Origin: Epilithonimonas zeae
Lineage (GTDB): Bacteria; Bacteroidota; Bacteroidia; Flavobacteriales; Weeksellaceae
Reading direction: 5' to 3'
DNA length: 64,000 bases
NCBI RefSeq assembly: GCF_023278365.1
Contig: NZ_CP075338.1
Coordinates: forward strand, 2,790,001-2,854,000
The notes under the pieces were generated by a model. It did not search any database, was not told the origin of the DNA, and worked only from the letters and a program-made list of their open reading frames with translations. A program made the translations under genes and the position numbers. Positions 31,911 to 45,700 of the stretch are shown here, piece by piece (position 1 is the stretch's first letter; the number at the start of each line of letters is the position of its first letter).

Positions 31911-32924
31911 CTATTTTGCTTCTTCTTTCTCTGGAAACATTACTGAAATCAACACTGATAAAATCAAAATCCCACCAACAATTCCCAATGAAACCGGAGA
32001 CGAAATATGATACCAAGGCGAGATCAACATCTTCACTCCAATGAAACTTAGAATTATTGCTAATCCGTAAGGTAATTTGCTGAACATATGGATGAAGTTG
32101 GATAGCAAGAAATATAAAGATCTCAATCCTAAAATCGCAAAAATGTTAGACGTATAAAGAATAAATGGATCTTTTGAAATGGCAAAGATTGCCGGAATAG
32201 AATCCACTGCAAACAATACATCCGTGAACTCTATCACCGCAACTACAACCAAAAGTGGTGTTGCCATTTTGATTCCGTTTTGTACTGTGAAGAACTTGTC
32301 TCCATCGTAGTTATCGGAAACTTTCCAGAAGCTTTTGATTAATTTTGCACCGGCACTTTCGCTGTAATCCTGCTCATCATCATCGTCACCGCCACCCCAG
32401 GATTTGATTCCTGCATAGACCAAAAATAATCCAAAAAGTGTCATAACTACATTGATTCTAACCGGATGTCCGAAAACATTCATTTCTGGCAGATAAGTCA
32501 AATCGATCAACTCAACACCTGCGAAGATGAAAATCGCTCTGAAAATCAACGCCCCGATAATTCCCCAAAACAAGACTTTGTGATGCAGATGTCTTGGAAC
32601 TTTGAAAAATCCAAAGACGAGAATGAATACAAAAAGATTATCAACCGATAAGGCTTTTTCTATCCAATAAGCGGCTTGAAACTGGGTGAATTTTTCAATT
32701 GCCAAAGCGTGTCCGCCGGCATCCTGATTGAAAACCCAATACACAATACCTGAAAAAACCATTGATAAAGAAATCCAGATAATACTCCAGATTGTCGCTT
32801 CTTTGGAAGACACCTCGTGCGCTTTTTTGTTGAAAACTCCAAGATCCAGCAATAACATTACTATCACTACGATAGCAAATCCTACTACAAGGCCGGGATG
32901 TAAATCGATAATACTCTTCTCCAT
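31911..32924 (-). CDS. terC: TerC-family integral membrane protein
   Basis: 337 aa with about nine membrane helices and the family's acidic motifs: EKALSVDNLFVFIL, EFTDVLFAVDSIPAIFAISK. A cytoplasmic Asp/Glu-rich loop (GGDDDDEQD, about residues 177-187) lies in the middle. TerC/Alx proteins are linked to tellurite resistance and manganese or other metal export. It is the last gene of the Ter operon, 11 nt after the kinase gene. In this setting it is the likely membrane anchor of the Ter complex or a metal transporter. Confidence 0.95.
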   Translation of the reverse strand: MEKSIIDLHPGLVVGFAIVVIVMLLLDLGVFNKKAHEVSSKEATIWSIIWISLSMVFSGIVYWVFNQDAGGHALAIEKFTQFQAAYWIEKALSVDNLFVFILVFGFFKVPRHLHHKVLFWGIIGALIFRAIFIFAGVELIDLTYLPEMNVFGHPVRINVVMTLFGLFLVYAGIKSWGGGDDDDEQDYSESAGAKLIKSFWKVSDNYDGDKFFTVQNGIKMATPLLVVVAVIEFTDVLFAVDSIPAIFAISKDPFILYTSNIFAILGLRSLYFLLSNFIHMFSKLPYGLAIILSFIGVKMLISPWYHISSPVSLGIVGGILILSVLISVMFPEKEEAK

Positions 32925-32935
32925 GTTTATTTTAA

Positions 32936-34450
32936 TTATTTATTTGTCAAAGTTATGTACATTAATCGTCCGCCTTCTTCATCGGACAACATTATTTTTT
33001 TCCCATCGGTCAATTCTACCATAGAGTTGATGGGAACTGGTTTATTTTCTGTTATATCTTTCATATCCGGCAAACTTTGATTCACCAAAACCCATCTATT
33101 CTGATGAAATGTGAAATAACCAACCGGTTTTTTATCTTCAGCTGTCAAACTTTCGTTCCGAATCACTTTCTTAGAAACGTGCCATTTGAAAAGATATTGG
33201 TTGTGATAGACCATTAATCTGTGATTTTCAGGTTTCCAAACATTGTCCTTGAATTTGAAATACAAATCGACAACCGGCAAAGTTCCTTTGTGCTGAGTTC
33301 CGCAGAACGGACATCTCGGCTTCGACGTATTATCAAAAACATACCATTTTTCATCACAATTGGGGTTGCTGCAAGGCTGGATCAAATCTACGGTTTTTAG
33401 CAATGCGGTTTCCCATTCATTAGCAATTGGTCGCAACATTGGATTATGCAAGCCGTCTACAAAAGCTCTTTTGAACAATTCTGACAGATAAGGTCCTGTA
33501 ACTGTGTACGGAATCTTCTGAGGATCGCCCCAAAACAGATTCCATTTTTTGAGATGGTCTACTTTTACACGATTGGTCGTATCTGTAGTACTTTCTACGA
33601 AAATTGCTTTCTCTCCCATCGATAAAACCTCATCTCTTTCCGAATCCAAATCCCAAATTTTTCCGCCACGTAAAGGATGCCTTCTGAGCAGATACATATA
33701 AATCAAAACCGCTAATGCGTGCAAATCTGTTTTCTGATTGGGTAAAATACGATTAGAATCCTGAAGTGGTAAATGCTTGGTTTTAAGAACTTCCGGCGCA
33801 ATAAAATCTGCTGTACCAATCACTTCAGGAGGGAATAGTCCTGGAACTACAAGTCCATCAATATCAATAATCGTAGCCGATTTTGTAACCGGATCTACCA
33901 AAACATTGTTGTAGGACAAATCCGAATGCGCCAATCCCATCTGATGCATTTTTTTCACGCCTCGGGAAATGTTGATGGCAATCTGAAAATAACTCAGCCA
34001 ATCTCCCAATTCTGACTTATCTAATGCCAATGGATATTGATTATTTCTGAATGAAGGCGTTGTAAACCACTTGCCTACTTTCTCGCCACCTTTGATAGTG
34101 TCATTGGCAGAGTATCCTTTTTTAAAGAAAAATTTGGAATTATAAATCGGAACAATGACGCCAATTTTTCCATTTTTTTCTACAGCATCAGAAGGCCAAC
34201 GGAAAATCTCGTCCAAGAAATAATCCGCACTGTTTCCCTTTTTGATGTTTTCCAGGTAAAGAGAAACGATTCGTTTAATTCTATCTTTTTGATTAAAATC
34301 CAACGGATCTCTGAAAAAAGCCACAACATATTGCCGATTCGGTGCAAAATATACATCTTTTACGCCGCCTCTTTTCGGGTTTCCATCATCTACATATTCA
34401 TAAGATTTTGATGGGTCTATGATAGAATTAACCTTGATTGTACTCATCAT
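32936..34450 (-). CDS. Eukaryote-like protein kinase with C-terminal zinc ribbon (Ter system kinase)
   Basis: 504 aa. Glycine-rich start GNPKRGGVKDVYFAP (about residues 23-37), then a catalytic loop MGLAHSDLSYNNVLV with D177 and the Asn pair, and IDIDG in place of DFG. The usual VAIK lysine is not obvious: the expected strand reads YVVAFFRD. After the kinase lobe (to about 340) comes a zinc ribbon with CSNPNC and CPFCG. With the PP2C gene 1 nt upstream and the vWA gene beyond, it forms the TerY-P triad known from Ter systems. The substrate is presumably another Ter protein (inference). Confidence 0.88.
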   Translation of the reverse strand: MMSTIKVNSIIDPSKSYEYVDDGNPKRGGVKDVYFAPNRQYVVAFFRDPLDFNQKDRIKRIVSLYLENIKKGNSADYFLDEIFRWPSDAVEKNGKIGVIVPIYNSKFFFKKGYSANDTIKGGEKVGKWFTTPSFRNNQYPLALDKSELGDWLSYFQIAINISRGVKKMHQMGLAHSDLSYNNVLVDPVTKSATIIDIDGLVVPGLFPPEVIGTADFIAPEVLKTKHLPLQDSNRILPNQKTDLHALAVLIYMYLLRRHPLRGGKIWDLDSERDEVLSMGEKAIFVESTTDTTNRVKVDHLKKWNLFWGDPQKIPYTVTGPYLSELFKRAFVDGLHNPMLRPIANEWETALLKTVDLIQPCSNPNCDEKWYVFDNTSKPRCPFCGTQHKGTLPVVDLYFKFKDNVWKPENHRLMVYHNQYLFKWHVSKKVIRNESLTAEDKKPVGYFTFHQNRWVLVNQSLPDMKDITENKPVPINSMVELTDGKKIMLSDEEGGRLMYITLTNK

Positions 34451-34451
34451 C

Positions 34452-35831
34452 TTAATAAATTACAGCTAATGTTCTATCGTCGTGATTGCCTTTGCTCCAA
34501 AAATCCATCCAGTCAGACAATTGATTTTCGATATTCTGATCTTCTGCGAAATCCACTTTTATTTGATCTTCATTTTTGCCATCCAAATCTTTGAGGAAAT
34601 TTTTCCAGCTCTCTAAGTTTTCCAATTTACTTTCCACAACGAATTTCGGATCATAAATTCCGTCCGTCATCAGAAATAATTTTGAGAAATCTTTGAAACA
34701 ATTGATTCCAAATCGGTCTGCCATATCTGGTCTGCTGAAAATGTCGGACATTGTGATAAATCTTGTCCCACCACTGAACTCGCCGACATCCAGAAAATTC
34801 AGAAGTTTTACACTTTCCTCGTTTTCATCAATGACATTGATTGGACAATCGCCAACGCCAAATGAGAGAACGACATAACCAAAATCAAATTTCTTGACCA
34901 AAACGAAAATCAAAGTCGTGTGGAGATCTTTTAGATTGATTTCTTCAGAATCTGCAAATTGGTTTAAAGCTTCGTTAAGTTGTTTTACATTTTTGTAGAG
35001 GCTGTTGATCACAAATGCTTTACTTTTAATCTTCGCATCTTCGGAATTATTGCCATCGAAATAACTGATAATTTCTGATGACAGATTTTGCAAAAAAGTT
35101 TCATTATTAAAACTTTCAGCGATATTTTCAGTTACAAATTTTGATCCTGCTCTGGCAAATTTTGCGGAACCAGCGCCATCAGCAACTGCAACTACATTCC
35201 AATCATCAGGTAAAGATTTTACTACGAAATCATCATCGCGGAAAGTTCCTTCGTGTGCGTGAGAACGACCTCTTTTGGATGCAACAACAATTTTTTTATC
35301 CAGGAAAGATGAAGAGAAAGTTACATTCTCTTCTTTCGGAAATCTGCTGTCTGTAGGACTTGGTTTATTCATCCAAAGATCTTTCGGGTCAGCATTGACG
35401 ATGAAAGGAATTTTTTTGATATCAATTTCAAAATTTTCGTCTTCTTTGTGGAAGAATTCGATTTCAATATCAATTTGACTGGCATTGGTTGGAACGCCGG
35501 AAATACAAGCTTTTTCTGCATCAAACTGTAAACCTACCAAATCCAAATTCTTAATATCATTGATTTGAATTTTCGGAAATAAAGAAGAATCAAAACAAAA
35601 TTGATATTCTTTTTTGACATTCGCATTCGGAATAGAAATCTGCTCCTCCCTGAATTCTTCTTTATCTTTATTCATATTGAAAATTTGTAGAATTTGAGAT
35701 TTTAAATTGCTGATCGATTGGGATAATTCATTCAATTTTGCGTTATCCCTCAACTTCAGAATTGTTGAATCAATTAGTTTATTTCTCTCAATATTATATT
35801 CCTTTAGAATTTCATTTAACAATTTTTCCAT
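34452..35831 (-). CDS. PP2C-family protein phosphatase (Ter system)
   Basis: 459 aa. An N-terminal region of about 170 residues with a coiled coil (residues 1-50) and a beta domain precedes a PP2C-like phosphatase. Metal-binding motifs: SHAHEGTFRDDDFVV near 190-205, VAVADGAGSAKFA, LMTDGIYDPKF and the terminal GNHDDRTLAVIY. PP2C enzymes remove Ser/Thr phosphate with Mn or Mg. It is positioned to oppose the kinase encoded 1 nt downstream; the vWA protein encoded 1 nt upstream completes the triad. The N-terminal extension may bind the partner proteins. Confidence 0.9.
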   Translation of the reverse strand: MEKLLNEILKEYNIERNKLIDSTILKLRDNAKLNELSQSISNLKSQILQIFNMNKDKEEFREEQISIPNANVKKEYQFCFDSSLFPKIQINDIKNLDLVGLQFDAEKACISGVPTNASQIDIEIEFFHKEDENFEIDIKKIPFIVNADPKDLWMNKPSPTDSRFPKEENVTFSSSFLDKKIVVASKRGRSHAHEGTFRDDDFVVKSLPDDWNVVAVADGAGSAKFARAGSKFVTENIAESFNNETFLQNLSSEIISYFDGNNSEDAKIKSKAFVINSLYKNVKQLNEALNQFADSEEINLKDLHTTLIFVLVKKFDFGYVVLSFGVGDCPINVIDENEESVKLLNFLDVGEFSGGTRFITMSDIFSRPDMADRFGINCFKDFSKLFLMTDGIYDPKFVVESKLENLESWKNFLKDLDGKNEDQIKVDFAEDQNIENQLSDWMDFWSKGNHDDRTLAVIY

Positions 35832-35832
35832 T

Positions 35833-36876
35833 CTATCCTAAAGTTCTGTTGATATCGAATCCACCTTCTGCCATTCCGTAAAATCCGGTATTCCCACACC
35901 AAGGACATTTTGCATTGCCGTCGCCGTTGATGCAATGAATTCCGCCACAAATGCAGGTTGCCAAAGCAAAATTGTTACCACAAGAAGGACAACTCGGATT
36001 GCCATAAAGTTCTTCACTTGAAATTTTGTTGGAAATAGCAGAATCCGCAGAGTATTCCCAATAAGAATTTTCATCGATTCTATAGGCACCTTCAACTTTG
36101 TAAAATCTGGTTTGGAAGCCGGGAACATTCGATTCCTGCAAAGCTTTCTTGAATTTCAGAAGATACATTTTGTCATTGGTAGAACATTTTCCACTGAGGA
36201 CAACAAAATTATTATCCGGCAACGAATGATTTTTAGACAAATCTATTTTTTCAACAATATCCGGATTGGATTTGCTAAGATCGATTCCTTCTTTATTGGT
36301 ATTATTGATATTTTCGCTGGTTGTTTTGATGGAAGCTGTTACCCATTTGAAAAATTCTTTATAGGAATTGCTGTCGGTATTATTGAACAACAAAACCTGA
36401 TCAGACAATCTTCCTAACAGATTGAGATTGGTATTATCACCAATAGAAATGATGACTAAGTTACTTTTGCCTCGATAATCATTATTCCAACGATTGATTG
36501 CTTTTTCGGAATCGTCTGTAGGAATTCCGTCTGTAAATAGAAAGACAATCGGTTTCCAGTCGCCTTTTCTTTCATAGGTTGTTTTCACTACATCTCTGTC
36601 GATAGCGTTCATCAGTTCTTCCAAACCTTTTGACAGCGAAGTTCCACTACCAATCGGAATTTTCGGCGGATAAAAAGTAATCACATCCTGCAATGGCGTA
36701 ATCGTCTTACTTTTTCCTGCAAAACCGATGATGGAAATCCAAACTGTTTCCAAAGCATATGGATCAGTTTTGAGTTCTTTGATAATGGTTGCAATTCCTT
36801 CCTGAACCTGTTCAATCGGTTCGCCAATCATCGATTCTGAAACATCCAGAAGGAAATAAATTGGTAATCTTCTCAT
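35833..36876 (-). CDS. TerY-type vWA protein with C-terminal zinc ribbon
   Basis: 347 aa. The von Willebrand A domain (about residues 1-190) has a complete MIDAS: D11-x-S13-x-S15 in LDVSESM and TDGIPTDD. A middle region follows, with LSGKCSTNDKMYLLKFKKAL. The C-terminal TerY-C metal-binding module has CPSCGNNFA, CICGGIHC and CPWCG. Of the three tandem vWA proteins only this one carries the ribbon and lies beside the phosphatase and kinase, so it is the TerY of the TerY-P triad. It probably acts as a cytoplasmic metal-dependent assembly factor. Confidence 0.92.
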   Translation of the reverse strand: MRRLPIYFLLDVSESMIGEPIEQVQEGIATIIKELKTDPYALETVWISIIGFAGKSKTITPLQDVITFYPPKIPIGSGTSLSKGLEELMNAIDRDVVKTTYERKGDWKPIVFLFTDGIPTDDSEKAINRWNNDYRGKSNLVIISIGDNTNLNLLGRLSDQVLLFNNTDSNSYKEFFKWVTASIKTTSENINNTNKEGIDLSKSNPDIVEKIDLSKNHSLPDNNFVVLSGKCSTNDKMYLLKFKKALQESNVPGFQTRFYKVEGAYRIDENSYWEYSADSAISNKISSEELYGNPSCPSCGNNFALATCICGGIHCINGDGNAKCPWCGNTGFYGMAEGGFDINRTLG

Positions 36877-36894
36877 AGCATTTGGTTTTTGGTT

Positions 36895-37533
36895 TTAGAC
36901 GATAATATTGAGTTCGCTTGGCGGTGGAGGAAGTGTCATAGATTCCCCTGTTCCTTGGGATTTGCTTCCCATTTCGATAGAAGAACTTACCCATTGGAAA
37001 AATGTGGTCAAAGTAGAAGCATCGGTTGTATCAAGCTTTACAACATTATTGGTTAATTCCTGAAGGAAACTAACTTCTGCTTTCGGTCCCGCTGCACAAC
37101 CTACAATAACCCCGAAATCTAAAGCTTTGATTTTGGGAATCATTTCTCTATATTTTTGCAAGTCAGACGGTTTGCCATCTGTAAAAATAAATAATAGAGG
37201 TTTCCAATCTCCTTTTCTGTCTGCAGAACCTTTGATCAAATCTTTATTGACCAAATCATAAATCATTTCCAAAGCCTGACCTGTATGCGTTGGTCCACTG
37301 TCCGGACATTTGATTTCGACCGGATGAAAACTTGCCAAATCCACCAATGGAATCAGATTGTTAACTTCTCTGTCAAACGTCACAACATTGATATGGAGAG
37401 AATCCATCGCTTGCGGATCTGTTCTCAGCATACTTATCAAACCATTGAATCCGTTATTCAGCGCAGCAATTGGTTCGCCTCGCATTGATCCGGAAGTGTC
37501 TAATAAGAAATAAGCTAAAAGTCGTCTGTTCAT
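36895..37533 (-). CDS. TerY-type vWA domain protein
   Basis: 212 aa, a stand-alone vWA domain. MIDAS: D12-x-S14-x-S16 in LDTSGSMRGEP and TDGKPSD near residue 120. The C-terminus ends in a proline-rich TLPPPPSELNIIV, almost the same as the end of the next vWA protein, PPPPSELVIVS. The two are recent tandem duplicates that have diverged in the middle. Family members assemble with TerD proteins in a metal-dependent way. It is separated from its neighbours by 2 and 18 nt. Confidence 0.92.
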   Translation of the reverse strand: MNRRLLAYFLLDTSGSMRGEPIAALNNGFNGLISMLRTDPQAMDSLHINVVTFDREVNNLIPLVDLASFHPVEIKCPDSGPTHTGQALEMIYDLVNKDLIKGSADRKGDWKPLLFIFTDGKPSDLQKYREMIPKIKALDFGVIVGCAAGPKAEVSFLQELTNNVVKLDTTDASTLTTFFQWVSSSIEMGSKSQGTGESMTLPPPPSELNIIV

Positions 37534-37535
37534 AA

Positions 37536-38174
37536 TTATGATACGATTACCAGTTCAGATGGTGGTGGCGGCAATTGATCCAATCCCACAAAATCAATTC
37601 CGGTTTCTTCCACTTTTGTAGAAGTTGTGGAAATGGATGCCGTTACCCATTGGAAAAATTTGGAAATACTTTCAGAATCTGCATTGTCCAATCTTACGAC
37701 AGAACTTGTGATCTGTTTCAAAATAGCATCATCTGCACCAGAACCAGCTGCACATCCGACAATCAAACCTTTGTTGACATTTTTAAGTTTATTAAAACCA
37801 ATCTGCCAATCATCCGTTGGGATTCCGTCTGTCATTATGAAAGTCAGAGGTTTCCAATCCCCTTTTTGCTCGGTAGTTGTTTTGGTAATCTCGAGTTCCA
37901 TTTTGTCTGCCAATAATCCTAAAGCAGCGCCCAAAGAAGTTGTGCTTTGCGCTTTGATATCGACCATTTGGAAAGATGCCAAATCTGTCAACGGAACTAT
38001 TTGCTTGGCTTCACTATCAAATGTTATGATACTGACATAAGCAGTTTCGATAGCCTGAGGATTTTGACGCAAAGAATGCAACATCATCTGAACGCCATTT
38101 TTCACAGCTTCTATCGGTTCTCCTGACATAGAGCCTGACGTATCGAGTAATAAATAAACGGGTAATCTTCTCAT
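37536..38174 (-). CDS. TerY-type vWA domain protein
   Basis: 212 aa, stand-alone vWA domain and paralogue of the adjacent downstream gene. MIDAS D11-x-S13-x-S15 in LDTSGSMSGEP; TDGIPTDDWQ near residue 119; GCAAGSGADD in the following strand. The C-terminal tail LPPPPSELVIVS is shared. Its ATG follows the stop of the 133-aa membrane protein gene without spacing, so translation is probably coupled. Confidence 0.92.
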   Translation of the reverse strand: MRRLPVYLLLDTSGSMSGEPIEAVKNGVQMMLHSLRQNPQAIETAYVSIITFDSEAKQIVPLTDLASFQMVDIKAQSTTSLGAALGLLADKMELEITKTTTEQKGDWKPLTFIMTDGIPTDDWQIGFNKLKNVNKGLIVGCAAGSGADDAILKQITSSVVRLDNADSESISKFFQWVTASISTTSTKVEETGIDFVGLDQLPPPPSELVIVS

Positions 38175-38576
38175 TTAATTGACATTATAAGTTGGTGTTT
38201 CTGACTCAGATTTATTATTAATCAAACTTTCTCCATAACCTGTATGACCATAAGAATCATCGTTTTGATTGATGTGGCCCATTACTTCTTGAGTAATATT
38301 CTTCCCTCCTGAAAGTACTCCGAATATCGAACCTATTGTATAAATCGGTCCCCAAGGAATTCCCCACCAGCCGACAATCAAAGATGTTCCAAGATGTTTC
38401 AAACCTGGTGTTATTGATGATTTGCCTGGTGGAATAAAATAAATGGAACTTGGTCTCTTGAATGTCATAAATATAATGGAGATGCAGTAATTGTACATTA
38501 CAAATTTACCGCCGTTATTTACCATTCCTCTGATTTGCTGGGTTGTTAAACCATCTGTGTTTTTAATTTTCATCAT
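38175..38576 (-). CDS. Small membrane protein of the Ter operon, 133 aa
   Basis: Not a classical Ter component. The N-terminal part reads LTTQQIRGMVNNGGKFVMYN. A Trp/Gly-rich hydrophobic stretch, SLIVGWWGIPWGPIYTIGSI, at about residues 85-104 resembles a conserved motif of uncharacterised proteins often annotated as hypothetical in Bacteroidota. The tail is Ser/Asn-rich and disordered. Probably one or two membrane insertions (also ISIIFMTF near 33-40). It starts within the stop of the upstream TerD gene (ATGA) and abuts the next vWA gene. The context suggests an envelope anchor for TerD/vWA proteins (inference). Confidence 0.8.
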   Translation of the reverse strand: MMKIKNTDGLTTQQIRGMVNNGGKFVMYNYCISIIFMTFKRPSSIYFIPPGKSSITPGLKHLGTSLIVGWWGIPWGPIYTIGSIFGVLSGGKNITQEVMGHINQNDDSYGHTGYGESLINNKSESETPTYNVN

Positions 38577-39229
38577 AAGTAGTTTTTATTAATTCTGTGA
38601 ATCGTTTGTCCAATAAACGCATCATCTGTCGGGTCGCCTATGGCATCGAATTTCCATTCTTCTCCCCTTTTGTACAATTTGGCCATAATAATGGCCGTTT
38701 TGTTTCGATAAGCAGATTCTGCTGAGACATTATAAGTTGCAAAAACAGAATTTACTCGCTTAGGCGTACCTTCAAACATTCTGATTTTCGCATAAGGAAT
38801 CTCTGAAAAATCCTCTTTTCCAACATTATTAAGAAAAAAGAAAATCTTAGAAACTTTCGGGTCTATTTTTGAAAGGTCAACTGTAATTATTTCATTATCC
38901 AAACCATCATCGCCTCCCTTATCACCTTCCAAATCGTCTCCTGTGTGTCGTAGAGCATTATCTTGTGACACCAATTTACCTTTTGGAAGTCCAAACTTCT
39001 GCAAAACATCAATATTGTAAAGCGGTGAGTAGAGGTGGTCACAAATATTATTATTAGTATCAAATAAGATACAGCTTAAGTCTAGGTCCACATCTTTGGA
39101 AGACCTCATCCCTAGAAAATTCTTCTTTTCTATTGCACCCCAGTTAACGCCAACACAAAAGTTTGTTAATGTTTCTCCAGAGCTTTTTCTAAGGTCAATT
39201 TTCTGTCCTTTTTGTAAATTGATTGACAT
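38573..39229 (-). CDS. TerD-family protein
   Basis: 218 aa TerD-domain protein. N-terminus SINLQKGQKIDLRK; calcium-binding-type acidic loops DLDLSCILFDTNN and GDDLEGDKGGDDG; C-terminus RGEEWKFDAIGDPTDD. TerD domains bind calcium and form complexes near the membrane in stress response. It is one of five TerD-type copies in the operon and closest to the copy directly upstream (39268-39879), apparently a tandem duplicate. Translationally coupled to the 133-aa membrane protein gene. Confidence 0.94.
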   Translation of the reverse strand: MSINLQKGQKIDLRKSSGETLTNFCVGVNWGAIEKKNFLGMRSSKDVDLDLSCILFDTNNNICDHLYSPLYNIDVLQKFGLPKGKLVSQDNALRHTGDDLEGDKGGDDGLDNEIITVDLSKIDPKVSKIFFFLNNVGKEDFSEIPYAKIRMFEGTPKRVNSVFATYNVSAESAYRNKTAIIMAKLYKRGEEWKFDAIGDPTDDAFIGQTIHRINKNYL

Positions 39230-39267
39230 TGTTATTAGTTTTTATTTTAAGATTAATTTTGAAAAAA

Positions 39268-39879
39268 TTATAAATAATTCTGTCTCACAGTTTCTACGGT
39301 TTCCTGCAGTTTTCTGTCTCTTGTAGGCTCTCCGATTGCATTGAATTTCCATTCACCGTTTCTTTTGTAGAAAACGCCCATTACCATTGCCACGTGACCA
39401 CCGAAATTATCGCCTTTTGCAATATTATAAGTTGCAAAAACTTCATTCACTCGGCTTGGTGTTCCTTCATAAATTCTAATCGATGCAAACGGAATCGTTC
39501 CGAAATCCTGTCCTTTGTAGCTATTCAAAACAAACGCAACGGACTGAACATTAGGACTTAATTTAGAAAAATCTAAAGTAATGATCTCATTATCCAGACC
39601 ATCGTCACCGGACAAATCACCCGTAAGATCATCACCGCTGTGTTTTACAGCACCGTCTCTAGACTTCAGTTGTCCAAAATAGACTACATCTACAGAATTT
39701 TTAGCTTCATCAAACAAAAGACAGCTTGCATCCAAATCCACTGCTTCTTTTGTCACGCTACCTAACCAGCTTTTTTTCTCGATTGCGCCCCAGTTAACGC
39801 CCACACAAACATTTTGTAATGTAGAGCCATTTTCTTTTACCAGACTTATTCTTTGTCCTTTTTGTAAGTTGATTGCCAT
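39268..39879 (-). CDS. TerD-family protein
   Basis: 203 aa. N-terminus AINLQKGQRISLVKENG, then NWGAIEKKSW shared with the adjacent paralogue. Acidic loops DLDASCLLFDEAKN and GDDLTGDLSGDDG supply the calcium ligands. The C-terminus NGEWKFNAIGEPTRD is the TerD ending. The same insertion of an NWGAIEKK segment in this and the next copy separates this pair from the shorter TerD copies at 41943 and 44644. It lies 2 nt after the unknown 322-aa gene. Confidence 0.95.
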   Translation of the reverse strand: MAINLQKGQRISLVKENGSTLQNVCVGVNWGAIEKKSWLGSVTKEAVDLDASCLLFDEAKNSVDVVYFGQLKSRDGAVKHSGDDLTGDLSGDDGLDNEIITLDFSKLSPNVQSVAFVLNSYKGQDFGTIPFASIRIYEGTPSRVNEVFATYNIAKGDNFGGHVAMVMGVFYKRNGEWKFNAIGEPTRDRKLQETVETVRQNYL

Positions 39880-39881
39880 TA

Positions 39882-40850
39882 TTATTGTATTTTATTATTT
39901 AAATTTAGATTAAGCATAGAATTAAGAATACTCAGTTCTTCATCGATGCTGATGACTTGGTTTAAGACTTCCTGACTGTCCAATGTTTCTTTATATTTTT
40001 CCAACATTGTGATGACTTCTTCAGGAAGTTCGGTTTTCATATTGTCGGCTTTTGTTTTAAGCTCCTCATTTCTATTTCTGAGTTCGCTGACAATGGATTT
40101 TTTAGACGATGTATTGGGAGAGCGATCCAGTAACAATGCAATATCTTGCTCCAAAAGATAAAACTCATTGGTCTGCAGATTCCAGATAAAATCTTCATCC
40201 GTGTCTACAATTCTGAACAATTCAAAAATCTGATTGCTAATGATATAACCACAAATAAATCTGATTTTAAAGTTATTAGCATTCAGTTTTCCTAATAATT
40301 TTCGTTCTATATCAACATTGTCGAACTCATAATATTTGACATCAGGCAAACTGAGCAGACAATCTATTTTCGCTTCTTTCCTGTAGTAATCCTGAGCATA
40401 GATATTAGAAAGATTCCTGATTTTCTTATAATCTACAGGGGTTACCACATCGGTCAAATTTTTATAAATAGATTTTAAAAAATCTGAAACCAGAGCATTC
40501 TGATATTTTCTTTCAGTACCGAAATCGCGGCCTCCTTTTTCCTGCGAAATAAATGCAGCGATATAATCCTCATTAGCATCAATTTCCTTATAAGCCGTAA
40601 GAATCCCTGCCTCCTTTTGTTTTTTAATTTTATCAAGAAGAACTATCAGGCTATCAGTGTATTGAAGATGAAACAACTCTAGCTTATTGATATCCAGACC
40701 TGCAATGGATTTGGATTCAAAATAAGAATGGATCACTTCTGTTTTGATGATAATATTGATAAGATCTTCCTGTCTAAAAAACTTACTTAGAAGCTTGAGT
40801 TTCTGAATTCTTTTTTTACTGTTCTTTAATATTTCCTTCTCCGGACTCAA
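39882..40850 (-). CDS. Unrecognised Ter-operon protein, 322 aa
   Basis: Predicted cytoplasmic and mainly helical, with no signal peptide or metal motif. The first third is basic and helical (KNSKKRIQKLKLLSKFFR). The middle has KYYEFDNVDIERKLLGKL and a hydrophobic IRFICGYIISNQIFELF. The last 90 residues form a coiled coil (SKKSIVSELRNRNEELKTKA). The start is TTG (reading MSPEKE), as no ATG lies in frame in the 7-nt gap. Position directly after telA suggests a partner of TelA. I do not recognise a family; a distant link to XpaC-like TelA partners is possible but not seen. Confidence 0.8.
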   Translation of the reverse strand: MSPEKEILKNSKKRIQKLKLLSKFFRQEDLINIIIKTEVIHSYFESKSIAGLDINKLELFHLQYTDSLIVLLDKIKKQKEAGILTAYKEIDANEDYIAAFISQEKGGRDFGTERKYQNALVSDFLKSIYKNLTDVVTPVDYKKIRNLSNIYAQDYYRKEAKIDCLLSLPDVKYYEFDNVDIERKLLGKLNANNFKIRFICGYIISNQIFELFRIVDTDEDFIWNLQTNEFYLLEQDIALLLDRSPNTSSKKSIVSELRNRNEELKTKADNMKTELPEEVITMLEKYKETLDSQEVLNQVISIDEELSILNSMLNLNLNNKIQ

Positions 40851-40857
40851 TTTTTAT

Positions 40858-41943
40858 TTAAGAATTTTGAATTTGTTTTTTCAAAGTATCTTCCAGGTTT
40901 TTAAGTTCTACATCCAACTGCTGTCTGGATTGTGCACCTTGCTGCTGGATTTGTTTCACCTCATTCAAAGTACTAATCAATGAACTTGTTGTATCCCGAA
41001 GCGTATCTATAGAAACAATCGTTTGCTCGTTAGCACGTGCCACATCAATTGTATTTTGCTGTAATCGTTGTGCATTTTTTCTAAGGATTTCTTCCGTTGT
41101 AGAAGACACTTTTTTCTGAACATCAATATTTTGCTGCTGTCTATGCATCGCCACAGCCAAAGTCAATTGGTTTTTCCAAACAGGAAGCGTTGTCGTCAAA
41201 ATAGTTTGTGCTTTTTCAGCAATAGAAACATTGTTATTCTGAATCAATCTGATTTGAGGCAACGATTGCAAAATGATGAAACGAACGACCTTCAAATCAG
41301 CCAGTCTTCTGTCCAATCTTGCGATAAAATCTCTTTTGTCAGCAATCTGGTAATCCTGATATTGAGCAGCATTGATTTCCATCAAAGCCAATTCTTCACT
41401 GGATTTTTGCATTCTGAGACTTCCTGCAATGATGTAATCTTCAATCTTTTTTACAGATTCTATATTGCTGGTAAAAATCGTTTGAAGAACTGCATTATCT
41501 TTTGTTGAATTGATGATTCCTGCATTGACTTTATTCGAAATGTCCGAAATATTATTGACGATTTTGTCATATTTCACAAACAAAGTTTCGACAGAACTTA
41601 CCATTTTGCTTAAGAAAGGAATCTTTTTCAGGAATTTCTTCACAGAACTTCCTTCCAATTCATCAACATCTACATAGTTGAGCTCAACCAATAGTTTATT
41701 AATCAATTCTCCAACTTCTCCAGAGTTTGATTTTCTAACATTATTCAGGAAAGAATCACTTTGATTAGCCAAAGAATTTTGCAATTCCGACCCAAAATTG
41801 ATAATCGAATTCGGGTTTTGTTCGTCTAATGAGCCAGAAAGACTGTCGTATTTCTGAACATCAATTGACGGAAGTTGCGCCAAATCTACGTTGCCATTTT
41901 TGTCAATGACAGGGCTTGTTACTTGAGGTAAATCCATTTCCAT
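40858..41943 (-). CDS. telA: Toxic anion resistance protein TelA
   Basis: 361 aa, all-helical TelA/KlaA family linked to resistance to tellurite and other toxic anions. Typical features are the middle VRFIILQSLPQIRLIQNNN, TTTLPVWKNQLTLAVAMHRQQ and the C-terminal long helix ending in LKNLEDTLKKQIQ. The family's biochemical role is unknown. It acts in the cytoplasm, probably with TerD proteins. The ATG overlaps the stop of the upstream TerD gene as TAATG, so translation is coupled. Confidence 0.95.
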   Translation of the reverse strand: MEMDLPQVTSPVIDKNGNVDLAQLPSIDVQKYDSLSGSLDEQNPNSIINFGSELQNSLANQSDSFLNNVRKSNSGEVGELINKLLVELNYVDVDELEGSSVKKFLKKIPFLSKMVSSVETLFVKYDKIVNNISDISNKVNAGIINSTKDNAVLQTIFTSNIESVKKIEDYIIAGSLRMQKSSEELALMEINAAQYQDYQIADKRDFIARLDRRLADLKVVRFIILQSLPQIRLIQNNNVSIAEKAQTILTTTLPVWKNQLTLAVAMHRQQQNIDVQKKVSSTTEEILRKNAQRLQQNTIDVARANEQTIVSIDTLRDTTSSLISTLNEVKQIQQQGAQSRQQLDVELKNLEDTLKKQIQNS

Positions 41944-42497
41944 TATTGATATAAACTTAAATATTTAGCTAAACCTTCTCTTTGTCCATTCCCAACAGCT
42001 TCGAACTTCCATTCGCCGTTTCTCTCATAAATTCTACCGAATTCTACGGCTGTTTCGATTGAGAAATCCTCATCTAATTCGTACTTTAAAATCTCTTCAT
42101 TGGTTTCAGTATTGAAAACTCTGATGAATGAATTTCTCACCTGTCCGAAGTTTTGATTTCTGGAATCCGCTTCGTGAATCGTTACCACAACGATGATTTC
42201 CTTAACTCTAGGGTCGATACCTGTAAGATCAATTTTAATTTGCTCATCATCGCCGTCGCCGTCTCCAGTCAGGTTATCTCCAGTGTGAGTTACAGATTTG
42301 TCAGGAGTTTGCAAGTTGTTATAAAAAACAAAGAACTCATCCGCTACCAATTTTTTATTCTCGCCCAACACAAAAACCGAAGCATCCAAATCGAAAGCAC
42401 CTCCAGTAGATGAATTGTTTGCGTCCCAGCCTAGTCCAATAGTGAATTTTGGGGCATTAATATTTTGTCTTTGTCCTTTTTGTAAGTTGATTGCCAT
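41943..42497 (-). CDS. TerD-family protein
   Basis: 184 aa, short TerD type. AINLQKGQRQNINAPKFTIG at the N-terminus, then GLGWDAN; DLDASVFVLGENKK and GDNLTGDGDGDDEQI as acidic calcium loops; VREIVVVVTIHEA-like strand; NGEWKFEAVGNGQRE at the end. It is most similar to the first gene of the operon (44644-45219), not to the 39-kb pair. Its first 22 codons overlap, in another frame, the 3' end of the phosphoribosyltransferase-like gene. Confidence 0.95.
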   Translation of the reverse strand: MAINLQKGQRQNINAPKFTIGLGWDANNSSTGGAFDLDASVFVLGENKKLVADEFFVFYNNLQTPDKSVTHTGDNLTGDGDGDDEQIKIDLTGIDPRVKEIIVVVTIHEADSRNQNFGQVRNSFIRVFNTETNEEILKYELDEDFSIETAVEFGRIYERNGEWKFEAVGNGQREGLAKYLSLYQ

Positions 42498-43306
42498 TGT
42501 AATTTATTTTTTAATTTGATTATATTTTGTTTGTATTCTTCTACCAAATGGTAGTTGTTGCTGATTGCCAGATTCAGGATTTCTTTTCTTTTAGCTTCTG
42601 AAATATTGTTATAAATATTCTCAAAATCCTGGTCCTGCATTAGCAAAATGTATTTTGTAATCCTTGTGTTGAAGTGGAAATCTCTGCCGTTAATTACATC
42701 AATCAAATCTTCAGTGGTTTTAATTTTGAAATAATTGTAATGATTTTCGATTTTTGGATGGATATTTTTGTTCATTAATTCAGCAAAATAAACGAAGATG
42801 AATTCGCCATTCACGTCATAATGTTTCAGGATTTTATCGACTGTATTTTCGTGACTTCCTGTGATTTTGATATCGTCCAAGAAAAGACAGAACTTGCCAT
42901 CTACAAAGCTTTTATCGATGTAATAAGTATCATTGGCGATGAGATTGATTCTTTCCTCATAACTCATATTGCCATAATCTTCCACATAAGTTTGCTTTCT
43001 GTGGATTTTTCCTTCCAGACAAGCTGATTTTCCATTCTCGAACAGGAAATAATTAAGCTGTTCCTTGAAATAGAAACAAAGAAAGTTCGAAGCTGTTGGA
43101 ATCGAATGATAAGGACTTGGAAACAGAATAATCTCTTCCTGTTCCAACAACTCATCTCTGAATTCTGAAATAAATCCCTGAAATAATTCTTCAGCAAATT
43201 CTTTCGCTACAGAAGTGTCTCCAAACTTGAACCTGCTGTAACTTCCTTCATCAAAAGGACTTTTAAGTTCACTTTCTATTTTATGTAAACTATATCTTTT
43301 TTTCAT
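42431..43306 (-). CDS. Phosphoribosyltransferase-like protein (Ter biosynthetic module)
   Basis: 291 aa. A PRPP-binding signature is visible: CLFLDDIKITGSHENT with D144-D145 and T149-G150-S151. Upstream strands include LFPSPYHSIPTASNF, giving a type-I PRTase-like core of about residues 55-190, with a helical C-terminal extension. Ter-associated PRTases are proposed to help make a nucleoside-like metabolite together with HAD and other enzymes. It lies 7 nt after the HAD gene. The last 67 nt overlap the next terD gene in another frame, adding a Lys-rich tail (KKDKDKI). Confidence 0.85.
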   Translation of the reverse strand: MKKRYSLHKIESELKSPFDEGSYSRFKFGDTSVAKEFAEELFQGFISEFRDELLEQEEIILFPSPYHSIPTASNFLCFYFKEQLNYFLFENGKSACLEGKIHRKQTYVEDYGNMSYEERINLIANDTYYIDKSFVDGKFCLFLDDIKITGSHENTVDKILKHYDVNGEFIFVYFAELMNKNIHPKIENHYNYFKIKTTEDLIDVINGRDFHFNTRITKYILLMQDQDFENIYNNISEAKRKEILNLAISNNYHLVEEYKQNIIKLKNKLQWQSTYKKDKDKILMPQNSLLD

Positions 43307-43313
43307 AACTTTT

Positions 43314-43979
43314 TTAAAATTTCACCAGTTGTGCTTTGACGCCAAATCGTTTTGCGCCTTCATAATCTGCAATTCTATTATCGCCTATATGTAAAATTTT
43401 TTCTTTTTCAACTTTTCTTAACTCATTGATTTTATTAAACATCATATCAAAAATCTTTAAGTTCGGTTTCGAAGCTTTTACCTCATCAGAAAAAATCATA
43501 AACGAAAAATAATTGGCCAAGCCGTGATGTTCCAAAACTTTCCTCAAAGATTCTCCATTGATAAACGCTGTGTTGCTTAAGATGCTTGCTGTTTTATTTT
43601 TTTCTTTGATTTCAATTAATATTTCCTCAATATTTTCCCATAAAATGACAGGTATATTATTCAGAAATAAGTCATCTACCTGATGAAAAAACTGATTGAG
43701 GTCTTCCAAAGAAATCTTTTCTGTGTCTTTTCCCAAAGCATCCAACATTATCAAAAAAGTCTCTTCTCTTTCCAGATGATTGCCAGTTTTTTCTGATATC
43801 CTGTTAAACAAAATATCATAATGCCTGACAGTTTTCCGAACCTCATCAATATCTTTTTCAATAGAAAAAAAATCTCTGAATAACGCATCTCTTTTCCCCT
43901 TGAAATTAGGATTAGATTTGATGATTGTCAGCCAAAGGTCAAAAGAAAAATGCTCGTACGAGTCTATATCTATCTCCAC
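43314..43979 (-). CDS. HAD-fold hydrolase-like protein (Ter biosynthetic module)
   Basis: 221 aa with HAD-fold motifs: motif I SFDLWLTI with D14, motif II SILSNTAF, motif III with Lys in VKASKPNLK and motif IV HIGDNRIADYEG. The second Asp of the phosphatase DxD motif is replaced by Trp (D14-L-W16), so ordinary phosphatase chemistry is doubtful. HAD proteins of Ter clusters are proposed parts of a nucleotide-related metabolite pathway. The start is GTG (reading MEIDIDSYEHF), 6 nt after the preceding stop. Confidence 0.87.
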   Translation of the reverse strand: MEIDIDSYEHFSFDLWLTIIKSNPNFKGKRDALFRDFFSIEKDIDEVRKTVRHYDILFNRISEKTGNHLEREETFLIMLDALGKDTEKISLEDLNQFFHQVDDLFLNNIPVILWENIEEILIEIKEKNKTASILSNTAFINGESLRKVLEHHGLANYFSFMIFSDEVKASKPNLKIFDMMFNKINELRKVEKEKILHIGDNRIADYEGAKRFGVKAQLVKF

Positions 43980-43985
43980 AAACTA

Positions 43986-44636
43986 TTACTTAGAACCCGC
44001 AGACCATTGCATTCCCCAATTGTACATCTTATCACAATCGCTATGCGAATTATGGAAAGTCACCAGTTTTTTCACCTGCATACTAGTTGGCGAAAATAGA
44101 ATCTCCGCGATAGCACAGAATTTTCTTGGATCACTTTGCTTGCCCATTTCAACTTCGATATCCGGATTTCCAGATACTTTGATGGTTACAACACCATTGG
44201 TTTCTGCCCATCTTGCAACACCATCATAGATGAAACAGTAAATGATCATTCTTTTGATGTTGTTATTAGGATTCACAATGATGTTTTCTCCAGATCCTGC
44301 CGCAGCTCCCCTGTCATCACCTGTATGCCAAACCCACGGCGAATCTGTATATCTGCCTTGGCGCGTTTGTCTGTCTCTTGGTCCGCCATTTCCTTTGGCA
44401 AACTGAACACCATCTATCACATTTTTTTGTCCATCTGCCAGCTCATAGAAACAACCAAGATCAAGATCAATTGCGTTATTACCGCCTAATAGACTTGCGA
44501 AAAAACCTTTTTTAGTTTCGCCTTGTGACCAGTTGAGATTAATAACAATCTCTTTACTGTTGTCTTTTTTTGTAAGATCAATGGAATGGGTGTCACCTTG
44601 TTTTTCAATGGTAACTTTTTGTAGGTTAATAGCCAT
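43986..44636 (-). CDS. TerD-domain protein, divergent (TerA-like)
   Basis: 216 aa. Starts AINLQKVTIEKQGDTHSIDL, resembling TerA/TerD N-termini, and has the DLDLGCFYELADG loop and a variant acidic loop (HTGDDRGAAAGSGEN) in place of the usual GDDxTGDxxGDDE. The C-terminus is unusual: KLVTFHNSHSDCDKMYNWGM, ending WSAGSK. It is the most diverged TerD copy here and probably has a distinct partner or metal. It lies 7 nt after the first terD gene and 6 nt before the HAD gene. Confidence 0.87.
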   Translation of the reverse strand: MAINLQKVTIEKQGDTHSIDLTKKDNSKEIVINLNWSQGETKKGFFASLLGGNNAIDLDLGCFYELADGQKNVIDGVQFAKGNGGPRDRQTRQGRYTDSPWVWHTGDDRGAAAGSGENIIVNPNNNIKRMIIYCFIYDGVARWAETNGVVTIKVSGNPDIEVEMGKQSDPRKFCAIAEILFSPTSMQVKKLVTFHNSHSDCDKMYNWGMQWSAGSK

Positions 44637-44643
44637 AATATGT

Positions 44644-45219
44644 TTATTTTATGATGGATCCGTTGTAATATTTTTCTAAGAAAAAGCCTAAATCTGCCTT
44701 ATATCCAATACCTGAAGCTTCGAATTTCCAAGCGCCGTTTCTTTTGTAAAGCCTTCCGAACTCAACACCCGTCTCGATAGAAAAATCTTCATCCAACTCG
44801 TATTTTGCAATTTCTTCATTATTAGAGTTATCTACAACTCTGATGTACGAATTACGAACCTGTCCGAAGTTTTGCTTTCTTCTTTCAAAATCCTCGATAG
44901 TGACTACAAAAAGAATCTCTTCTACTCTGGAATCTACTTTATCCAAATCTATTACGATAGCCTCATCATCATCGCCATCACTATTTCCACCTGTTGGATC
45001 ATCACCTGTGTGAGTAAGAGCGCCATCAGGAGAACTCAAATTATTATAAAAAACAAAATAATCTTCTCCCACCAATTTTCTGTTAGAATCGATCATTATT
45101 GCGGACGCATCCAAATCAAAATCGTGACCTGTTCCTTCATTAGGATCCCATCCTAACCCGATCGTCATTTTGGTTAACCCGATGTCAATTTTTTGTCCTT
45201 TTTGTAAATTAATTGCCAT
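44644..45219 (-). CDS. TerD-family protein, first gene of the Ter operon
   Basis: 191 aa. AINLQKGQKIDIGLTKMTIG, GLGWDPNEG, loops DLDASAIMIDSNRK and GDDPTGGNSDGDDDE, and NGAWKFEASGIGYK at the end: the standard TerD pattern with complete acidic loops. It is closely related to the 41943-42497 copy. Preceded by a Bacteroidota-type promoter. It should be the most strongly expressed gene of the operon (inference from position). Confidence 0.95.
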   Translation of the reverse strand: MAINLQKGQKIDIGLTKMTIGLGWDPNEGTGHDFDLDASAIMIDSNRKLVGEDYFVFYNNLSSPDGALTHTGDDPTGGNSDGDDDEAIVIDLDKVDSRVEEILFVVTIEDFERRKQNFGQVRNSYIRVVDNSNNEEIAKYELDEDFSIETGVEFGRLYKRNGAWKFEASGIGYKADLGFFLEKYYNGSIIK

Positions 45220-45250
45220 AAATATGTTTTAATGTTTTATTAGTTTTGAT

Positions 45251-45279
45251 GAAAGGTAAATATAGAACTTTCCTGCCAA
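45251..45279 (-). promoter_or_regulatory. Promoter of the Ter operon
   Basis: Minus strand: TTG (45279-45277), an 18-nt spacer and TACCTTTC (45258-45251), one base off the -7 consensus TAnnTTTG. It lies 32 nt upstream of the first terD start. Confidence 0.5.
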
Positions 45280-45420
45280 TGAAAATTATCGAAAAGTTTA
45301 AAAAAATCATAAATTTTCAGTTAATTTTATAAAATTCAAGGACTTTTTAGTAATTCTATGAGATAAATCATTCATTCTAAAATTGATACCACACAGTCTC
45401 TTATCGAACGAGCATCGAAC

Positions 45421-45486
45421 AACGGATATACAACGGATATACAACGGATATAGAATGGATATACAACTATCGAAGAAAGGATATAC
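45421..45486 (+). repeat. 11-bp tandem repeat array, six units
   Basis: Unit AACGGATATAC: copies at 45421, 45432, 45443 (last base G), 45454 (AATGGATATAC), 45465 (diverged, AACTATCGAAG) and 45476 (AAAGGATATAC). The 11-bp period is close to one DNA turn. No other such array was noticed in the window. Confidence 0.85.
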
Positions 45487-45700
45487 AAGCATTGATATTA
45501 TGTTAAATGATAACCTGTTAAGATCCTTAAAATCAAATATTAAGCCTCGACAAAAATAAAAATTTTACATCACGACACGTTTTGACGTTAACCTATAATA
45601 CTTTTGGCAAATATAATATTCAAAGTATGACAATTGTCTTGAGAAAATACAATTAATGATTTGAAATTAAACCTAACTTTACACAAGCAAAATGTAGATT

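What the first reader, a model, noticed from the sequence alone, without database searches (positions are those of the whole stretch)
31911..45219. Sixteen-gene Ter-type stress operon with two kinds of regulation built in
All genes run leftward with gaps of at most 38 nt (the longest between the two TerD genes near 39.2 kb), several start/stop overlaps, one candidate promoter in front and one strong terminator behind. The content is five TerD-domain proteins, TelA, TerC, three TerY-type vWA proteins, a PP2C phosphatase, a eukaryote-like kinase, a HAD-fold protein and a PRTase-like protein, plus two unknowns. The vWA-PP2C-kinase trio matches the TerY-P triad described for Ter systems. HAD plus PRTase is a reduced form of the proposed nucleoside-metabolite module; ATP-grasp and TerB genes are missing. 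The arrangement suggests metal or stress sensing, phosphorylation signalling and a modified-nucleotide signal in one unit.
Basis: partly seen in the sequence, partly recalled or inferred. Interest (0 to 1): 0.75.

Follow-up and report, generated by a model that had tools for sequence, protein, structure and literature searches.

The report
Composite two-module Ter stress operon
Sixteen genes that look like one bacterial stress operon are two separable modules merged together, an enzyme-and-membrane module and a protein-phosphorylation module, and the kinase in it appears to have moved its key lysine in the way the animal WNK kinases did.

Summary
In detail: 16 leftward genes, gaps of at most 38 nt, a strong terminator behind; no specific promoter could be shown. 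"One Ter unit with a reduced nucleoside module" is only partly right. The operon is composite. Module A (HAD, PRTase_3, TerD, TelA, orf322, TerD, TerC) stands alone in Chryseobacterium and two congeners. Module B (TerD, TerD, vWA, TerY_C, PP2C, kinase) is a separate locus in many of the same genomes, yet nearly always travels with A. The 322-aa unknown follows TelA in 77 of 79 loci. HAD+PRTase need not be a remnant of the ATP-grasp pathway: it is a portable two-gene unit, also in 154 phage records, that may work like the PRPP-dependent transferase/HAD-phosphatase pair of ribofuranosylation. The kinase lacks the beta-3 lysine but has an invariant Gly-loop lysine (175 of 175 sequences), the WNK position. 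A kinase with the same motif letters is listed in print as a pseudokinase; I predict activity, though a conserved arginine beside the old site is an alternative. Chemistry and physiology are inferred, not shown. Verdict: real, a new variant of a known kind, moderate interest.

The parts
44644..45219 (-). g1 TerD; heads stand-alone module B in Chryseobacterium
   Evidence: Pfam TerD 230 bits; 87-92% to the first gene of 19 of 20 stand-alone cassettes read, 74% in L176
43986..44636 (-). g2 divergent TerD
   Evidence: no Pfam/NCBIfam hit; hhalign to TerD profile prob 98.3
43314..43979 (-). g3 HAD enzyme, motif I DxWxT (no second Asp)
   Evidence: HAD_2 56 bits; DxWxT in 99 of 100 distinct relatives
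42431..43306 (-). g4 PRTase_3 with intact PRPP motif DDIKITG
   Evidence: PF15610 276 bits; D144, D145, I146, I148, T149, G150 in 94 of 94, K147 in 91 of 94
41943..42497 (-). g5 TerD
   Evidence: Pfam 242 bits
40858..41943 (-). g6 TelA
   Evidence: PF05816 290 bits
39882..40850 (-). g7 orf322, family PF26677 (precomputed label); TelA partner
   Evidence: label; directly after TelA in 77 of 79 loci; present/absent together with TelA in 94 of 94 decidable PRTase loci
39268..39879 (-). g8 TerD; last gene of module A before TerC
   Evidence: Pfam 139.6 bits
38573..39229 (-). g9 TerD, apparently swapped in with g10
   Evidence: 61-62% to sister species, 73-77% to most Flavobacterium, 81% to L094
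38175..38576 (-). g10 orf133, small protein with WWGIPWGP motif
   Evidence: no family; 479 relatives reported, best 120 listed; absent from the sister-species loci checked
37536..38174 (-). g11 vWA, MIDAS intact
   Evidence: motif counts
36895..37533 (-). g12 vWA, MIDAS intact
35833..36876 (-). g13 vWA + TerY_C metal-binding domain
   Evidence: PF15616 135.6 bits; 7 Cys and 1 His of the ribbon in 52 of 52
34452..35831 (-). g14 PP2C phosphatase, metal-site motifs intact
   Evidence: PP2C_2 102.5 bits; DGAG, GD, DG of TDG and DDRT in 53 of 53
32936..34450 (-). g15 kinase with candidate relocated lysine (K31), Cys-rich ribbon, C-terminal beta domain
31911..32924 (-). g16 TerC/Alx-family membrane protein
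   Evidence: TIGR03718 358 bits; the only TerC match in the genome
31826..31885 (-). intrinsic terminator-like hairpin after TerC
   Evidence: z -5.3
45220..45700 (-). leader region divergent from a cydA-like gene; promoter not located; carries a non-conserved 11-bp tandem repeat at 45419-45467

Best explanation
A composite Ter stress operon made of two modules that also exist apart. Module A = HAD, PRTase_3, TerD, (TelA-orf322), TerD, TerC. Module B = TerD, TerD, vWA, vWA, vWA-TerY_C, PP2C, kinase; here it is split around module A, with TerD9-orf133 in addition. [quoted passage not shown] TerD proteins bind ions or that metabolite at a TerC membrane complex scaffolded by TelA-orf322. Module B sets the phosphorylation state of the complex: the kinase uses a lysine that has moved to the Gly-rich loop, PP2C reverses it, and the MIDAS vWA proteins present the targets. 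Shown: gene content, order, modularity, co-occurrence, invariant residues. Inferred: all chemistry, substrates, signal and phenotype.
For: Modularity: module A without B in 15 of 19 same-family loci, with B in 4; B alone in the 20 Chryseobacterium-group loci read of 24 known. Co-occurrence though unlinked: in 197 family genomes PRTase_3 is over the cut-off in 53 and TerY_C in 31, both in 29, of which 24 unlinked; Fisher p 6e-18, not corrected for kinship. TelA and orf322 present or absent together in 94 of 94 decidable PRTase loci (79 and 15). HAD directly before PRTase in 94 of 94 loci and in 6 of 6 phage/plasmid contexts viewed; 154 phage records for each. HAD matches 7shg 'Ribofuranosyl transferase' over residues 3-219, E 2.8e-5; the two-step chemistry is described in PMC11127046 (passages). 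Kinase residues K31, D177, N182, D196, D198 in 175 of 175; PP2C directly before the kinase in 71 of 72.
Against: No expression or biochemical data. Module A is not rigid: 15 of 94 decidable PRTase loci lack TelA-orf322, and all 15 carry the cassette. The HAD's best PDB hits are other HADs (2om6, E 4.6e-12, C-terminal half) and PRTase_3 has no PDB relative, so the ribofuranosylation parallel rests on one weak match plus gene pairing. Residue 47 of the kinase, beside the lost beta-3 lysine, is always basic (R 167, K 5, H 3 of 175) and could replace it instead of K31. The kinase model is poor in the C-lobe (mean pLDDT 67) and the N-lobe profile finds no kinase in PDB. 24 of 53 PRTase_3 genomes lack TerY_C, so A does not need B. 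TerY_C occurs without PRTase_3 in G111, G057 and G501.
Confidence: 0.55

Rival explanations
1. One integrated unit: all sixteen genes evolved and act together, and the separate arrangements are secondary decay.
For: Phosphorylation genes also sit between TerD and TerC in Flavobacterium, Pedobacter, Sphingobacterium and (no TerY_C detected) Chitinophaga loci, so the joined order may be old; the PRTase tree needs only 7 changes of cassette linkage against 29.2 for shuffled labels.
Against: Module A is kept contiguous where B is gone or elsewhere, and B is kept as its own locus; starred branches force at least 4 changes on each tree.
Confidence: 0.25
2. The kinase is a pseudokinase, or uses R47 rather than K31; in the first case module B works by binding, not by phosphorylation.
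For: No lysine at position 46 in 175 of 175 and a basic residue at 47 in 175 of 175; a review lists a Yersinia kinase of family Yegi1 with the motif letters VVA-, Hsdlsykn, DVD as a pseudokinase (PMC12599244, passages). I did not compare that sequence itself.
Against: H175, D177, N182, D196 and D198 are in 175 of 175; K31 is invariant where WNK has its catalytic lysine (PMC1821047, passages); a PP2C gene directly precedes the kinase in 71 of 72, with intact motifs.
Confidence: 0.35
3. The HAD-PRTase product is a ribosylated envelope lipid or glycan rather than a free nucleoside.
For: The HAD+PRPP enzymes described in PMC11127046 and PMC11231755 (passages) act on glycans or polyprenyl phosphate; a Klebsiella ter study proposes a role in envelope stabilisation (PMC9933665, passages).
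Against: Phage neighbours include nucleotide and RNA enzymes (NMN adenylyltransferase/NUDIX, RNA ligase, tRNA nucleotidyltransferase, NrdD); no test here links PRTase_3 to the gPRT fold.
Confidence: 0.3
4. The operon's main selective role is exclusion of phages or other invading DNA rather than metal or oxidant stress.
For: Phages carry HAD-PRT (154 records) and TerD (78 records), two of the four viewed (Kikimora, RHph_TM21B) both, tens of kb apart; ter genes are reported to affect phage inhibition and colicin resistance (PMC12054061 introduction, which lists Whelan 1995 as reference 23); PMC7824862 proposes superinfection exclusion.
Against: No annotated Ter gene lies in the stretches viewed, up to 6 kb each side, in the four phages; TerC/Alx and TerY_C point to metals, and plasmid ter genes are induced by Te, Zn and Mn.
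Confidence: 0.25

Closest known systems
IncHI2-type plasmid ter locus (viewed in E. coli pP2-3T, L174/L196)
   Same: TerD paralogues, TerC, and vWA-TerY_C-PP2C-kinase in the same order; kinase 50% identical.
   Different: Two divergent operons there; biosynthetic part is ATP-grasp, another PRTase, StiP, HpcH/HpaI, DUF4236, TerW; it has TerB, and no TelA, orf322 or HAD is annotated in the stretches viewed (that gene table is incomplete). In the window all is one leftward run with HAD-PRTase_3.
Ter system as described by Anantharaman et al. 2012 (paper not held; seen only as cited in PMC7824862, PMC8115787, PMC12054061)
   Same: TerD, TerC, TelA, vWA, PRTase and HAD listed as components.
   Different: Whether that paper describes the separability of the modules, the TelA-orf322 pair, the DxW HAD or the kinase lysine I could not check.
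PRPP-dependent ribofuranosyltransferases (gPRT + HAD PRP)
   Same: A PRPP-motif enzyme coupled to a HAD; aromatic residue at +2 of motif I in the aligned 7shg segment.
   Different: Two separate proteins here, different PRTase family.
WNK and POMK kinases
   Same: No beta-3 lysine; invariant Gly-loop lysine; POMK also has a DLD-type motif.
   Different: No sequence kinship shown; the N-lobe profile finds no kinase in PDB.
CAK-chloro subfamily of microbial kinases
   Different: Arg rather than Lys at 55; not compared with sequences here.
E. coli K-12 yegI-pphC-yegL
   Same: vWA, PP2C and kinase neighbours; YegI shares the C-lobe and Zn-ribbon region (BLAST E 3.7e-6 in a 16-protein database).
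   Different: YegI has a lysine in the beta-3 segment and none at the K31 position (Tyr in that alignment; Gly if aligned by the GxGxxG motif).

Membership tests
Ter stress-response system | TerD-domain proteins with TerC | tested here: met
Ter stress-response system | confers tellurite/oxidant/phage phenotypes | not testable with these tools
   needs bench work
TerY-P triad | adjacent TerY vWA (TerY_C), PP2C and kinase | tested here: met
Ter ATP-grasp biosynthetic module | ATPgrasp_Ter gene | tested here: not met
   none in the operon; genome hit is a non-specific 1060-aa frame
Ter ATP-grasp biosynthetic module | TerB nearby | tested here: not met
   none in the operon; one sub-cut-off hit elsewhere
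gPRT-PRP ribofuranosyltransferase | HAD PRP-like domain | tested here: inconclusive
   27 bits to 7shg over nearly the full length
gPRT-PRP ribofuranosyltransferase | gPRT-type PRTase fold | tested here: inconclusive
   PRTase_3 profile finds nothing in PDB; fold not modelled
WNK-type kinase | beta-3 lysine absent | tested here: met
   0 of 175 have Lys at position 46; 5 of 175 have Lys at 47
WNK-type kinase | lysine at Gly-loop position 55 (PKA numbering) | tested here: met
   K31 in 175 of 175; position judged by motif and DSSP, not by a reliable superposition
WNK-type kinase | that lysine is needed for catalysis | not testable with these tools
   needs assay
WNK-type kinase | sequence kinship with eukaryotic WNKs | tested here: inconclusive
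   weak C-lobe hits to many kinases, WNK among them; N-lobe finds no kinase

The most novel reading that the evidence does not exclude
The TerY-P kinase, matched in 2355 plasmid records and in chromosomes, is an active bacterial 'with-no-lysine' kinase rather than a pseudokinase: its ATP lysine moved from beta-3 (where the distant relative YegI still has one) to the Gly-rich loop at the WNK position, with an invariant DxD motif recalling POMK. In this operon it works beside a portable HAD-PRTase_3 pair, shared with large phages, that makes a ribosylated signal in two steps.
Probability: 0.42. Interest if true: 0.65.

Novelty: new variant of a known kind. Interest (0 to 1): 0.5.

Why it matters
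It replaces a single vague 'Ter operon' with testable units: a TelA-orf322 pair, a portable HAD-PRTase_3 enzyme pair that phages also carry, and a separable phosphorylation module. If the kinase is active through K31, the lysine shift known from WNK kinases (PMC1821047, passages, which also suggests a similar shift for the CAK-chloro subfamily) would have a clear bacterial case in a family matched on 2355 of 72,556 plasmid records, and at least one published pseudokinase call would need a second look.

Tried and rejected

For these I lowered the novel case from 0.45 to 0.42 and its interest from 0.7 to 0.65.

Literature: 10 of 10 searches used. None of their listings showed, in title or abstract start, the Ter kinase as lysine-relocated, the TelA-orf322 pair, or the module split. 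The founding paper (Anantharaman 2012), the Kelly 2022 ribofuranose paper and the YegK/PphC paper, all recalled, are not held, so nothing is claimed to be absent from print.

Rows dropped before counts: one search found 173 relatives and kept the best 80. One search dropped the same ten duplicates (120 loci); one search had counted them (82 of 83). Absence means no BLAST hit at 1e-4 to the window protein. One search dropped L038-L040. One search dropped the HAD of Rhizobium phage RHph_TM21B (motif I not readable) and counted as a miss one HAD whose called ORF seems to start after the motif. Its 175 kinases are distinct sequences, not independent ones; a few are partial copies of one gene, and of the 4138 kinase relatives reported only the 120 listed were examined. 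Of 24 unlinked cassettes 20 were fetched and read; the other four are judged by coordinates.


Full report
Observation. One search confirms 16 leftward ORFs at 31911-45219. Pfam, NCBIfam and profile comparison confirm the named content, including five TerD-domain proteins, the fifth only by hhalign. Between the operon and the next gene downstream (pgi-like, 30008-31651, recognised by eye) lies a strong hairpin with a T-run. Upstream is a 481-nt region divergent from a cydA-like gene (recognised by eye). The promoter scan is not informative, and no Rfam element reaches threshold apart from a tRNA. All four Pfam-detectable TerD genes and the only TerC match of the 3.94-Mb genome lie here.

Modules. 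I fetched 20 same-family loci; 19 carry the PRTase. In 15 the operon is only HAD-PRTase-TerD-TelA-orf322-TerD-TerC; in 4 the same core is extended as in the window. In 80 named loci, the best of 173 found, the extended form is common in Flavobacterium, Pedobacter and Sphingobacterium, and the core form in Chryseobacterium. TerY_C searches then showed that many Chryseobacterium-group genomes carry the phosphorylation genes elsewhere, as TerD-TerD-vWA-TerY_C-PP2C-kinase. In 197 family genomes PRTase_3 is over the cut-off in 53, TerY_C in 31, both in 29; 24 of these 29 are unlinked. In 395 genomes of the phylum 8 of 9 TerY_C genomes also have PRTase_3, and TelA is over the cut-off in all 14 PRTase_3 genomes and in one other. 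The Fisher value (6e-18) ignores kinship. On the PRTase tree (95 rows) linkage changes at least 7 times by parsimony, 4 forced by starred branches, against 29.2 for shuffled labels; on the kinase tree (53 rows) 4. So the window's operon is one of several arrangements of two units that tend to stay in the same genome. Whether fusion or splitting came first I cannot say; the joined form is widespread, which favours an old joined state with repeated separation. Module A itself varies: 15 of 94 decidable PRTase loci lack TelA-orf322, and all 15 carry the cassette.

TelA-orf322. Without duplicates, 77 of 79 TelA genes are immediately followed by orf322. The exceptions are L111, with a 121-aa ORF between, and L168, a TelA outside any Ter or PRTase context without a detectable orf322. 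Over 94 decidable PRTase loci the two are both present in 79 and both absent in 15. The protein carries the precomputed label PF26677. Its model is moderately confident (pLDDT 81, pTM 0.53), helical with a central beta part, and matches nothing convincingly. The simplest reading is a TelA partner or regulator.

HAD-PRTase_3. The HAD directly precedes the PRTase in 94 of 94 loci. The PRPP loop (D-D-I, I-T-G) is invariant in 94 of 94 PRTases. The HAD has Asp then Trp at +2 (DxWxT) in 99 of 100 distinct sequences, five phage and plasmid members included. Most HAD phosphatases have a second Asp there (recalled), so its chemistry may differ. The pair is not tied to Ter genes: the window PRTase finds 154 of 50,697 phage records, and phage HAD and PRTase queries also find 154 each with nearly the same organism tally; I did not check the sets record by record. 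In six contexts viewed (four phages, two plasmids) the HAD abuts or overlaps the PRTase, six of six. Two of those phages, Kikimora and RHph_TM21B, do carry a TerD tens of kb away. On a Rhizobium plasmid the pair has no annotated Ter gene within 8 kb; on a Hymenobacter plasmid it lies divergent from TerD x3-vWA-vWA-PP2C-kinase. The HAD matches the PDB entry 7shg, a ribofuranosyl transferase, over nearly its whole length at 27 bits, though better-scoring HADs match its C-terminal half. PMC11127046 (passages) describes such enzymes as a PRPP-using phosphoribosyl transferase followed by a HAD phosphatase. I take this as the best chemical model, not as membership.

Kinase. The N-lobe reads G-[GST]-x-K-[DN]-V-[YF]-F then YVVA-[FILV]-[FY], with rare exceptions. 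By motif and by the model's strands (beta-2 31-35, beta-3 41-46) the usual beta-3 lysine position is Phe/Tyr in 175 of 175 and K31 is invariant in 175 of 175, four plasmid kinases included. This is the position where WNK kinases have their lysine; PMC1821047 (passages) calls WNKs the only functional ePK family lacking the usual lysine, and suggests a similar charge shift (to Arg) in the CAK-chloro subfamily. The distant E. coli relative YegI has a lysine in the beta-3 segment and none opposite K31 (Tyr in the alignment), so the shift can tentatively be polarised. PMC12599244 (passages) lists a Yersinia kinase with the same motif letters as a pseudokinase, and describes POMK as binding ATP with a Gly-loop lysine and a DLD motif; here D196 and D198 are invariant. 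Against it: residue 47 is basic in 175 of 175 and could stand in for the lysine, there is no assay, the C-lobe model is poor, and no solved N-lobe is close.

TerD9-orf133. Twelve of the other genes are 90-99% identical to at least one sister-species locus (L037, L055, L056), the HAD 77-78% and PP2C 76-85%, but TerD9 is only 61-62%, while it is 73-77% to most Flavobacterium copies and 81% to L094, where no orf133 was detected. orf133 is absent in those sisters and present (45-49%) in the Flavobacterium and Pedobacter loci compared. The two genes were probably exchanged.

Function. Ter genes elsewhere are induced by Te, Zn and Mn (PMC12054061, passages), TerC proteins handle Mn (PMC12096827, abstract), the Klebsiella ter operon is proposed to aid envelope stabilisation and stress tolerance (PMC9933665, passages), and a review proposes TelA as part of sub-membrane structures and TerD as ligand binder (PMC7824862, passages). 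PMC8115787 (passages) describes the plasmid ter locus as two operons. None of this was tested for this operon.

Verdict. The unit is composite; the most testable new points are the kinase lysine, the TelA-orf322 pair and the portable HAD-PRTase_3 pair.

Noticed in passing
window 38175-39229: TerD9 and orf133 look exchanged as a block: sister species have a different TerD (61-62%) and no orf133, while many Flavobacterium loci have both.
   Followed up: partly
window 45419-45467: 11-bp tandem repeat (4.5 copies) in the leader, absent from the otherwise similar leader of G123.
   Followed up: yes
L204 10526-10720 and L174 7083-8291: DUF4236 proteins are annotated near the HAD-PRTase pair in Brevundimonas phage Kikimora and in the IncHI2 ter locus.
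   Followed up: no
L202 1-8798 (Hymenobacter monticola plasmid): HAD-PRTase divergent from TerD x3-vWA-vWA-PP2C-kinase-DUF475: the two modules facing each other.
   Followed up: no
L063, L173 and other Flavobacterium loci: Extra small ORFs (about 152-163 and 83 aa) sit between the vWA and TerY_C genes; absent in the window.
   Followed up: no
L168 (G198): A TelA gene without detected Ter neighbours or orf322, flanked by 261-aa and 332-aa ORFs: a different TelA context.
   Followed up: no
phage records H68, H146: One of the two genes under the PRTase match is annotated 'Zot-like toxin' in some phage records; the match there is to a phosphoribosyltransferase, so the label is probably an annotation error.
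   Followed up: no
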